From assembly GCA_020629615.1 (NCBI GenBank), contig JAHDCZ010000009.1, forward strand, positions 1 through 53,299: a stretch of DNA of 53,299 nt, in the 5' to 3' direction. Shown in pieces: positions 6,466 through 41,229 of this stretch; position 1 is the stretch's first letter, and each line of letters opens with the position of its first letter. Source of the stretch: Saprospiraceae bacterium (GTDB lineage: Bacteria > Bacteroidota > Bacteroidia > Chitinophagales > Saprospiraceae). Position numbers and translations under genes: made by a program. The notes below the pieces were generated by a model. It did no database searches. It had not been told where the DNA came from and was given only the letters and a program-made list of their open reading frames with translations.

Positions 6466-8223
6466 ATGAGCAAATTTGTCGTATCCGCTAGAAAATATAG
6501 ACCCCAAACTTTTGATCAAGTTATTGGGCAGAACCATATTTCTGATACATTAAAAAATGCGCTTGTTTCCGAGCAGTTGGCTCATGCATTTCTGTTCTGC
6601 GGACCAAGAGGTGTTGGTAAAACAACCTGTGCCAGAGTTTTGGCCAAGGTTTTAAATTGTGAAAACCTTCAAAACGATCAAGACCCTTGCAACAGTTGTA
6701 GCTCTTGTACCGCATTTAATGACAATGCTTCTTTTAATATTATCGAACTTGATGCCGCCTCAAACAATAGCGTCGATCATATCCGAACATTGATTGAACA
6801 AGTTCGATTTCAACCTCAACAGGGCAAATACAAAGTATTTATCATTGATGAGGTTCATATGTTATCTACCGCTGCTTTTAATGCCTTTCTAAAAACATTG
6901 GAAGAACCACCTTCATATGCTATTTTCATTCTGGCAACAACAGAAAAACACAAGGTCTTACCCACCATTCTTTCACGTTGTCAAGTATTTGACTTTAAGC
7001 GCATCCAGGTCGTTGACATTGTTCATCAATTAGAAAACATTGTAAAAGAAGAAGGATTAACTGCCGAGCCCGAAGCCTTACAAATTATTGCTCAAAAGGC
7101 TGATGGAGCTATGCGAGATGCTTTATCCATATACGACAAAATAGCAAGTAGCTCTAGCAAAGAAATCACATACAAAAATGTCATTAAGAACCTTAATGTT
7201 CTTGACTTTGATTACTATTTTAAAGTAGTGGATGCGTTTGTCAGGGAAGATTTGAACGATGTCCTTCTTATTTTTGATGACATCTTAAAACAAGGATTTG
7301 ACCCTGATTTATTTGTCCAAGGTCTTGGGCAACACTGTCGTGATATTTTGGTAAGTCAGCATCAAAAAACCTTGCAATTACTTGAAGTAGGTGATGGATT
7401 AAAACAGCGCTATACCGATCAATCGCAATTGGCTTCTCGTTCGCTACTTCTAAACGCATTGAACATTTTAAACAAATGTGATGTCGAAATGCAGCGAGCT
7501 CAAAACAAAAGACTTCATGTCGAAATAGCACTGGGAAAAATTACATACGTCCAACGTACTATTGATGGTACGACTTCCGTCGAATCTCACTCGGTAAAAA
7601 AAAACTCTAATCACAAACCAAGTTTAGAAAAAGACCGTAGCCATTCGGATCCCAATGAAAATCAAGAGACCCATTCGGCTCCAGCCAAAACAACAAGTCC
7701 TAAACCCTCTGTTTCTTCTGATACCAGTCCATCTCAGAAAATAGAGAAACCCAAATCTAGTTTATTACTTTCCAAAAAAATATCTGACTTAGGTGCAATA
7801 CGAAGTGAAATAAAACAAGAAGAAGCAGAAAAAGCCGCTAACACTAAGGAATTAAACCTTGAAGATTTAGAAAGTATCTGGAAAAGTTATCAGGAAGAGC
7901 TAAGTTCTAACTCTGCACGCTTGGCTTTGAAAAATGTACACTTAGAAGTTGAAGGAAGTGAAATAAAAGTATTTGTACCTAATTCTGTATCCAAAGATTT
8001 ATTGGTTCAAGAAATTGATTTGATCCAAAAAATTCGTGAGACTTTTAACAAACCAGAGCTAGGATTGAACATTGAAATTGATTTAGAGCGATTTCCGAAT
8101 CAAGAGAATTATGCTCCCAAAAAAATGCTAACCAATCGAGAAAAATATGAGCTTCTCTCCACCAAAAATCCTTTATTAGTGAAACTTAAAAACACCTTTG
8201 ACTTGGGTGTTGATAATCAATAA
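6466..8223 (+). CDS. dnaX: DNA polymerase III tau (and possibly gamma) subunit
   Basis: DnaX is the ATPase of the clamp loader, which places the beta clamp on primed DNA and, as tau, couples polymerase to helicase. The AAA+ module starts near the N-terminus with Walker A GPRGVGKT at residues 46-53, then a Cys4 zinc site (C near 68, then DPCNSCSSC) and Walker B IIDEVHML. The oligomerisation domain III ends near residue 365 (RLHVEIALGKITYV). A polar Ser/Lys/Pro linker at about 370-455 leads to a C-terminal tau-like domain at about 470-585. Nine A residues at 7596-7604 begin at the last base of codon 377, at the start of the linker. Slippage there would end the protein within 2-8 codons and leave only the clamp-loader part (see findings). 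Start ATG 6466 is preceded by a TAnnTTTG box. Confidence 0.97.
   Translation: MSKFVVSARKYRPQTFDQVIGQNHISDTLKNALVSEQLAHAFLFCGPRGVGKTTCARVLAKVLNCENLQNDQDPCNSCSSCTAFNDNASFNIIELDAASNNSVDHIRTLIEQVRFQPQQGKYKVFIIDEVHMLSTAAFNAFLKTLEEPPSYAIFILATTEKHKVLPTILSRCQVFDFKRIQVVDIVHQLENIVKEEGLTAEPEALQIIAQKADGAMRDALSIYDKIASSSSKEITYKNVIKNLNVLDFDYYFKVVDAFVREDLNDVLLIFDDILKQGFDPDLFVQGLGQHCRDILVSQHQKTLQLLEVGDGLKQRYTDQSQLASRSLLLNALNILNKCDVEMQRAQNKRLHVEIALGKITYVQRTIDGTTSVESHSVKKNSNHKPSLEKDRSHSDPNENQETHSAPAKTTSPKPSVSSDTSPSQKIEKPKSSLLLSKKISDLGAIRSEIKQEEAEKAANTKELNLEDLESIWKSYQEELSSNSARLALKNVHLEVEGSEIKVFVPNSVSKDLLVQEIDLIQKIRETFNKPELGLNIEIDLERFPNQENYAPKKMLTNREKYELLSTKNPLLVKLKNTFDLGVDNQ
7596..7605 (+). other. A9 slippery tract in dnaX
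   Basis: Codons 377-380 read GTA AAA AAA AAC, which contains both A AAA AAA and A AAA AAC slippery heptamers. A shift of -1 gives CTC TAA (stop at 7608-7610, a 381-residue product). A shift of +1 or loss of one A reaches TAG at 7625-7627 (386 residues). Both products end just after domain III, where gamma ends functionally in known dnaX genes. The sequence is seen directly; the function is inferred. Confidence 0.5.
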
Positions 8224-40467: not shown

Positions 40468-41229
40468 ATGAAAAAATCTGGAATTACAATACTGATCGCT
40501 TTTTTTACGGCTTGGACAATTACTTCATTCGCGCAAAGCGAACAAAAAAAAATAGAAAGAGAAGTAATAATCATCAAAGAAAAAATTGATGCTAATGGAA
40601 AGAAAACTATTAAAAAATTAGTGAAGCGAGGCTTTGATATTACAGACGAGGATATTGATGTTATGATGCAAGAATTGGATAATGAATTGGATTATAACAT
40701 TGATTCTACAACAACAATTTCTAATAAAGAGATAAGAATAGAAATAGAATCTGATGAAGATCTCTCAGATGAAGAAATAGAAAAAATATTGAAAGAACAT
40801 AAGGCCAATGATCATTTTGAAAACACCGATGACATTGAAATCTCCATCCGTAAATCAAGCGCTGATGGCGAAGAAATCATTGAAAAAATTATTGAACAAT
40901 CAAGTGTTTCGAAAGATGATAAACCTCGTTTGGGCATTTTAATAGAGTCAATCGAAAACGAAAGAGGTGTTACGATACAAGAGGTCTTACCCGATAGTCC
41001 AGCAGAAAAAGCAGGCCTACAGAAAAATGATATCATCCAAGAATTAAATCATCAAAAGATAACTTCAGTCGATGAATTGATGATGATTTTAAAGAATCAA
41101 AAAGAAAAATCTTTACCCATAAAATATCTTCGTGGAAAAGAAAGTACACAAACCATTGTTGAGTTAATTCCCTTCAAGGCTGATCGGATAGAAAAGAAAA
41201 TTATTAAAAAACGAATCGATAAGAAATAA
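40468..41229 (+). CDS. Exported PDZ-domain protein
   Basis: A 253-residue protein with a signal peptide (1-22, SFAQ), a charged helical middle rich in Glu/Asp/Lys (about 25-145) and one PDZ domain at about 150-237 (PRLGILIESI, VLPDSPAEKAGLQKNDIIQELN, SLPIKYLRG). There is no protease domain, so it is not DegP-like; it may be a periplasmic adaptor or an envelope stress sensor. An A9 run near codon 25 (CAA AAA AAA ATA) was noticed. It is divergent from the two-component genes and may be in their regulon, which is inference. Confidence 0.8.
   Translation: MKKSGITILIAFFTAWTITSFAQSEQKKIEREVIIIKEKIDANGKKTIKKLVKRGFDITDEDIDVMMQELDNELDYNIDSTTTISNKEIRIEIESDEDLSDEEIEKILKEHKANDHFENTDDIEISIRKSSADGEEIIEKIIEQSSVSKDDKPRLGILIESIENERGVTIQEVLPDSPAEKAGLQKNDIIQELNHQKITSVDELMMILKNQKEKSLPIKYLRGKESTQTIVELIPFKADRIEKKIIKKRIDKK

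What the first reader, a model, noticed from the sequence alone, without database searches (positions are those of the whole stretch)
7596..7627. A9 slippery tract in dnaX positioned to make a gamma-like short product
Nine A residues begin at codon 377, just after clamp-loader domain III, and create A AAA AAA and A AAA AAC heptamers. A -1 shift stops two codons later (TAA 7608-7610); a +1 shift or loss of one A stops at TAG 7625-7627. E. coli makes gamma by -1 frameshifting at A AAA AAG in dnaX, and Thermus thermophilus by slippage on an A9 run; both sites lie at the same structural boundary. I know of no established case in Bacteroidota. Caution: A9 and T9 runs also occur elsewhere in this AT-rich window, and chance stops are frequent.
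Basis: partly seen in the sequence, partly recalled or inferred. Interest (0 to 1): 0.7.

Follow-up and report, generated by a model that had tools for sequence, protein, structure and literature searches.

The report
Conserved poly-A slippage switch in dnaX
A run of nine A's in a DNA-replication gene recurs, as nine or more A's, at the same spot in most sampled relatives although the surrounding sequence drifts freely, so it is very probably a built-in slippage site that lets one gene make both a long and a short clamp-loader protein.

Summary
In detail: dnaX (6466-8223) holds A9 at 7596-7604 just after domain III, with nearby stops in both other frames. It is not chance. A run of at least nine A's is there in 26 of 26 readable loci of a 30-genome relatives search and in 46 of 48 other same-class genomes of a separate phylum draw. 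Of 242 distinct loci scanned, the longest A-run near the site is 9-12 in 149, 8 in one, 7 in four, shorter or absent in 88. Flanking columns are near random, all codon phases occur, and A>=9 is five- to ninefold depleted in coding DNA of three genomes.

Of 148 loci with the run analysed in detail, tau is one ORF in 101 (a slip gives gamma) and gamma is the plain product in 47 (tau needs a slip). The states change at least 19 times on a tree. Best reading: RNA-polymerase slippage of the Thermus type, not the E. coli ribosomal element (Rfam RF00382 not found).

A two-ORF A10 type was published in 2013 (PMC3711429), so this is a well-supported new member of a known kind; products are unmeasured. 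In a Bacteroidaceae sample the run is nearly absent, and 43 of 50 loci carry a GGGC-loop-GCCC hairpin nearby, function unknown.

The parts
6466..8223 (+). dnaX, tau reading frame, 585 aa
   Evidence: ORF; Pfam PF13177, PF22608, PF12169; TIGR02397 445.5 bits, cut-off 250
7198..7563 (+). clamp-loader domain III (residues 245-366)
   Evidence: PF12169 match
7596..7604 (+). A9 slippage tract
   Evidence: sequence; longest A-run near this place is >=9 in 149 of 242 distinct loci scanned
7608..7610 (+). TAA, reached in the -1 frame (one extra A or two fewer): ends gamma-like product of 380-381 aa
7625..7627 (+). TAG, reached in the +1 frame (one A fewer or two extra): ends gamma-like product of 386-387 aa
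7605..8220 (+). tau-specific linker and C-terminal part, made only when the run stays in frame
   Evidence: translation; a homologous C-terminal part is found in the shifted frame of 44 of 47 split loci

Best explanation
The A9 run is a programmed transcriptional slippage site. RNA polymerase slips on it and makes dnaX mRNAs with 8, 9, 10 or more A's. Transcripts with 9 or 12 A's give tau (66 kDa); the others meet a stop 3 or 20 bases after the run and give a gamma-like clamp-loader subunit of about 43 kDa, domains I-III plus a short tail. Shown here: presence, position, conservation, scarcity of runs of 7-8, both out-of-frame stops, and repeated interchange with relatives in which gamma is the plain product and tau needs the slip. 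Inferred: that polymerase rather than ribosome slips, that both products are made in useful amounts, and that gamma has a function.
For: Order level: 26 of 26 readable loci, own included, have A9-A11; of the 30 genomes 4 were unreadable (no usable dnaX in 2, N gap at the site, contig end). Phylum draw: 46 of 48 other same-class genomes have A>=9 (one read separately; one genome, G008, is in both samples). All 242 distinct loci scanned: longest A-run near the site >=9 in 149, 8 in 1, 7 in 4, <=6 or none in 88. The next figures are for the 148 loci selected for A>=9: lengths 9/10/11/12 = 41/94/12/1; flanking columns within 30 bases have a majority base of only 0.27-0.50; 26 different four-residue readings in the 101 single-ORF loci; phases 0/1/2 = 28/68/52, so the DNA and not the peptide is kept. 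Elsewhere in dnaX of 151 such loci (3 duplicates in): A7 77, A8 20, A>=9 none in 253,416 bases. Stops in the 101 single-ORF loci: -1 stop within 5 nt in 83 (codon-shuffle null 0.21); both stops within 30 nt in 91. 47 split loci: a tau-like C-terminal part in the shifted frame in 44 of 47 by HMM, wrong frames 0 of 94. At least 19 single/split changes on a 243-row FastTree tree. A>=9 in coding DNA: 4 against 21.9, 5 against 26.1, 1 against 8.7 expected, as expected if such runs slip. RF00382 hits the E. coli control (96.8 bits) but not the window locus nor any of 20 further loci tested.
Against: No RNA or protein data. In split genes tau lies in the -1 frame in 45 of 47, which -1 ribosomal shifting would also give; the two +1 cases (L074, L169) could be homopolymer errors. 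Four loci have a longest run of A7 or A8 in phase 2, where a ribosomal heptamer would fit (L035, L090, L173, L319); L173 also has a -1 stop 2 nt on. Upstream Shine-Dalgarno-like words are commoner than in control stretches (19 of 148 against 0.058). The downstream hairpin test was insensitive: the E. coli control itself scored z -0.39. The run is absent in two same-family genomes of one genus (L033, L035), in 21 of 80 named loci, 20 of them titled as Bacteroidales or families I place there, in all but one of 50 loci of a Bacteroidaceae sample, and in 20 of 40 readable loci from other classes, so gamma by this route is not universal. Depletion of A>=9 could also reflect replication slippage. 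PMC3711429 reports Chlorobium dnaX with A8 and A7.
Confidence: 0.82

Rival explanations
1. -1 programmed ribosomal frameshifting at A_AAA_AAA / A_AAA_AAC, as in E. coli dnaX.
For: In-frame heptamers are present. Tau is in the -1 frame in 45 of 47 split loci. Excess of SD-like words upstream. Four loci have A7/A8 in the fitting phase 2.
Against: The ribosome needs A7 in phase 2 and A8 in phase 1, yet 120 of the 148 detailed loci are in those phases and have nine or more, against four loci in all 242 with a shorter fitting run. The base after the run is C 64, G 50, T 34 rather than mainly G. No RF00382 match. No hairpin excess downstream, though that test is weak.
Confidence: 0.11
2. Neutral or protein-level cause: a Lys-Lys(-Lys) motif in an AT-rich gene, with chance stops.
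For: AAA is the commoner Lys codon (0.75 in this genome); linkers are Lys-rich by eye.
Against: 26 of 26 readable order-level loci keep an uninterrupted run, while 1009 of 3239 Lys codons upstream in the 148 genes are AAG; A>=9 is depleted in coding DNA; phase and peptide vary; stops lie closer than shuffled codons give.
Confidence: 0.03
3. DNA-level phase variation by replication slippage: run length flips between cells, switching tau on and off.
For: Lengths 9-12 and at least 19 single/split changes between relatives.
Against: tau and gamma belong to the replicase (recalled), and some clades keep one state: nine split rows of one genus code form one starred clade. The changes look evolutionary.
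Confidence: 0.04

Closest known systems
Thermus thermophilus dnaX (A9, transcriptional slippage)
   Same: Nine A's in a single tau ORF, with nearby stops in both other frames giving gamma (passages of PMC1088944; section 21 of PMC5009743).
   Different: Different phylum. PMC1088944 places that run seven-eighths through its coding sequence; here it is about two-thirds through (codon 377 of 585). Slippage is not measured here.
Two-ORF dnaX genes of the GeneTack study (PMC3711429, section 23)
   Same: Poly-A (mostly A10) at the gamma/tau boundary, tau in the other frame: like the 47 split loci here.
   Different: The window gene is the single-ORF form. The published set is 17 genes from 12 genera; the genera with ten A's are in a figure not readable here.
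E. coli dnaX -1 ribosomal frameshift element (Rfam RF00382)
   Same: Same gene, comparable boundary, A-rich shift site and nearby -1 stop.
   Different: No RF00382 match; run of at least 9 instead of A6G; a close stop in the third frame too.

Membership tests
Thermus-type dnaX transcriptional slippage | Run of at least nine A's in dnaX at the gamma/tau boundary | tested here: met
Thermus-type dnaX transcriptional slippage | Nearby stops in both non-tau frames | tested here: met
   3 and 20 nt after the run in the window; both within 30 nt in 91 of 101 single-ORF loci
Thermus-type dnaX transcriptional slippage | Kept as nucleotides across relatives | tested here: met
   26 of 26 readable order-level loci; 46 of 48 same-class genomes of the phylum draw
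Thermus-type dnaX transcriptional slippage | Heterogeneous dnaX mRNA and two proteins | not testable with these tools
   No RNA or protein data
E. coli-type dnaX -1 PRF element (RF00382) | Match to the covariance model | tested here: not met
   No hit at E<=1 in L001, the window's own locus; E. coli control 96.8 bits; 0 of 20 other loci at gathering score
E. coli-type dnaX -1 PRF element (RF00382) | Stem-loop 3' and Shine-Dalgarno 5' of the shift site | tested here: inconclusive
   Window downstream 60 nt MFE -3.6; mean z of 147 loci -0.27 against -0.19 in control stretches, but the E. coli control z was only -0.39; SD-like 19 of 148 against 0.058
GeneTack two-ORF dnaX | Zero-frame stop after the run, tau in another frame | tested here: not met
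   The window gene is a single ORF; 47 of 148 loci with the run meet it, one of them (L165) judged on 83 nt only

The most novel reading that the evidence does not exclude
The slippage switch is an old feature of the group, and in Bacteroidaceae it was exchanged for a different device at the same boundary: a short RNA hairpin (GGGC-loop-GCCC, some with UUCG loops) that makes gamma, or sets the gamma/tau ratio, by a route not yet described. In 50 sampled loci 43 have the core (18 of the 20 fetched after the pattern was seen), 3 more have altered but paired stems, 3 have neither, and the one that has A11 lacks the core. Elsewhere the core lies in the linker of 1 of 148 A-run loci.
Probability: 0.2. 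Interest if true: 0.75.

Novelty: new member of a known kind. Interest (0 to 1): 0.6.

Why it matters
Whether gamma is a general part of the bacterial replicase has been debated (PMC5009743, section 21, notes the E. coli controversy). A run held at nine or more A's through deep divergence is evidence that a short DnaX form is under selection in much of this phylum. The natural single-ORF and split forms, plus lineages without the run, give ready comparisons for asking what gamma does. It also warns annotators that split dnaX genes in these genomes are mostly real rather than sequencing errors.

Tried and rejected
tRNA-Lys inventory (relevant to ribosomal shifting): the pattern search and ARAGORN found one tRNA-Lys(CUU) in G031 and were uninformative for the other four genomes; not pursued. 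Folding next to the run: downstream no excess; upstream weak excess (mean z -0.64 against -0.11, 0.13 against 0.06 below -2), perhaps a nascent-RNA hairpin, not strong enough to claim. Exact hairpin word GGGCGTAGCCC as a repeated genome element in 5 genomes: few hits, much like the reversed control. A -1 stop right after the Bacteroidaceae hairpin: not universal by eye, so no simple -1 shift model fits. First pass on minus-strand loci missed runs because whole-genome loci are not reoriented; corrected.

Mended on re-check: 'never 7 or 8' held only because the 148 loci were selected for A>=9. The unselected count shows one A8 and four A7 in 242 loci, four of these five in the phase a ribosomal shift would need; I lowered slippage from 0.85 to 0.82 and raised ribosomal shifting from 0.08 to 0.11. 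The ten named loci had been picked because they show the hairpin; the unselected figure is 43 of 50.

Rows dropped: L031, L034 and L145 as duplicates of L001, L012 and L025, also L276 and L315; L029, L030, L005, L023 unreadable at the site; L086 ends at its contig. L063 was cut short by my own coordinates; its A10 was read and it is not among the 148 or the 242. The 41 other-class loci were chosen by me from the listed matches and are not random; the 80 named loci are the best 80 of 592 in a capped scan; the 50 Bacteroidaceae-sample loci are the best 50 of 60 matches.

Full report
Observation. The window's dnaX is 6466-8223 on the + strand, 585 aa, identified by TIGR02397 above cut-off and Pfam domains. 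A9 lies at 7596-7604, eleven codons past the domain III match. The -1 stop is 7608-7610 and the +1 stop 7625-7627. Transcripts with 9 or 12 A's give tau (66 kDa); 7, 8, 10 or 11 give 380-387 aa, about 43 kDa.

More than chance. In 262 kb of crudely predicted coding sequence from this genome A>=9 occurs 4 times against 21.9 under synonymous shuffling. Stretches of two other genomes of the class show 5 against 26.1 and 1 against 8.7. [quoted passage not shown] Replication slippage could add to the depletion.

Conservation. Thirty relatives were searched. Of these, 26 loci are readable at the site and all 26 carry A9-A11. An evenly drawn phylum sample of 198 genomes contained 48 other genomes of the same class (names withheld); 46 carry A>=9. 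The two exceptions, L033 and L035, belong to one genus of the same family. Of 80 named loci, the best 80 of a capped scan, 59 carry it, including Chitinophaga terrae, Hymenobacter, Terrimonas, Mucilaginibacter, Pedobacter, Rufibacter, Dyadobacter and Aureispira. Of the other 21, 20 are titled as Bacteroidales or as families I place there, and three have under 460 nt after domain III; other loci titled Bacteroidales do carry the run. Of 40 readable loci from other classes, picked by me, 20 carry it. Over all 242 distinct loci scanned, the longest A-run near the site is >=9 in 149, 8 in one, 7 in four and <=6 or absent in 88; five of the 242 have under 200 nt after domain III and one has N's there.

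The DNA is the conserved object. In the 148 loci selected for A>=9, all three codon phases are used (28, 68, 52), 26 different four-residue readings are encoded in the 101 single-ORF loci, and columns within 30 bases on either side have a majority base of 0.27-0.50. Elsewhere in the same genes there are 77 A7 and 20 A8 runs and none of nine or more in 253,416 bases.

Two interchangeable layouts. In 101 loci tau is a single ORF and both other frames close fast: the -1 stop lies within 5 nt in 83 (null 0.21), and both stops lie within 30 nt in 91. In 47 loci the zero frame stops 0-19 nt after the run and tau lies in another frame (45 in -1, 2 in +1; L165 rests on 83 nt). The C-terminal part there matches an HMM built from 90 single-ORF genes in 44 of 47 (not L114, L117, L165), wrong frames 0 of 94. 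On a FastTree tree of 243 rows, many of its forks weakly supported, the layouts change at least 19 times and run/no-run at least 16 times. One added or lost A converts one layout to the other, which is tolerable only if both products are made either way (inference).

Mechanism. Ribosomal -1 shifting on A_AAA_AAA needs A7, A8 or A9 depending on phase. Of the 148 loci, 120 are in the two phases that need fewer than nine, against only four loci in the whole scan with a shorter run that would fit (L035, L090, L173, L319; all phase 2). Those four could be ribosomal sites or chance; L090 and L319 lie 140 and 275 nt downstream. The base after the run is not mainly G (C 64, G 50, T 34). RF00382 detects E. 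coli dnaX strongly but not the window locus or 20 others. These point to RNA-polymerase slippage. Points the other way: the 45 to 2 direction bias in split genes and an excess of SD-like words (19 of 148 against 0.058). The folding test cannot exclude a stimulatory hairpin because its own control failed. I put slippage at 0.82 and ribosomal shifting at 0.11, changed from 0.85 and 0.08.

What is known. Thermus thermophilus dnaX uses A9 slippage (passages of PMC1088944; section 21 of PMC5009743). PMC3711429 (section 23, and passages) described 17 two-ORF dnaX genes from 12 genera, nine with ten A's, and named three Chlorobi with nine, eight and seven; the figure with the rest was not readable here. 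PMC5009743 also notes that one nucleotide can reverse which product is standard (passage). Slippage has been proposed to mend a frameshift in Blochmannia dnaX, at a different place in the tau-only region (PMC3017870, passages). Searches for dnaX with frameshifting or slippage and Bacteroidetes, Flavobacterium, Bacteroides or Chlorobium (the 20 of 30 listed too) showed, by listings and the passages read, no paper on Bacteroidota dnaX recoding other than possibly PMC3711429; the one flavobacterial-endosymbiont paper listed mentions dnaX only in a presence table (PMC3971599, passages). Only open-licence papers are held. Hence: new member of a known kind, with class-wide evidence that I did not find in print.

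Side finding. Sampling 61 genomes of the family of L179 (titled Bacteroides sp.) and reading 50 loci shows one A-run of nine or more (L296, A11, split). GGGC-N3/4-GCYC lies within the first 90 nt of the linker in 43 of the 50, 18 of the 20 fetched after the pattern was seen. With ten named loci that I had picked for showing it, there are 51 distinct loci with the core; it lies 39-57 nt into the linker with GGG always in codon phase, and occurs 3 times in 99,224 nt elsewhere in those genes. The next pair outward forms in 30 of 51 against 21.9 in column shuffles, reached by 1 of 2000; the second outward 15 against 10.4 (62 of 2000); pairs further out show no excess; shuffles ignore relatedness. 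L283, L291 and L301 have different but paired stems. L289, L314 and L325 have neither hairpin core nor run. There is no Rfam match at the hairpin in the four loci tested (L276, L288, L290, L319). Its function is unknown.

Noticed in passing
L276-L325 (family sample around L179), 39-57 nt after the end of the domain III match: Short conserved hairpin GGGC-N3/4-GCCC in dnaX near where relatives have the A-run, with varied loops (UUCG, GCAA, GTA) and some altered but paired stems; GGG always in codon phase; by eye mostly followed by a K-P-x-F peptide.
   Followed up: partly
window 40544-40552: A second A9 run, 76 nt into an ORF (40468-41229) for a protein with a signal-like start that looks PDZ-like by eye (recalled, no call); one A fewer or one more truncates it after 28 or 40 residues. 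Probably incidental.
   Followed up: no
L005 (G001, same genus), at the dnaX site: A run of N's covers the linker at the slippage site, so of the two same-genus genomes only L002 could be compared (A10, single ORF).
   Followed up: no
L033 and L035 (same family, one genus): The only two of 48 other same-class genomes of the phylum draw without A>=9; tau is a single ORF there, a natural loss. L035 has A7 in the phase that a ribosomal shift would need.
   Followed up: partly
L132, 283 nt after the end of the domain III match: A10 with a -1 stop 3 nt later, but far downstream in the linker: the site seems to have moved.
   Followed up: no
L173, 74 nt after the end of the domain III match: A7 in phase 2 followed by G, with a -1 stop 2 nt on: resembles a ribosomal shift site more than a slippage run.
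   Followed up: no
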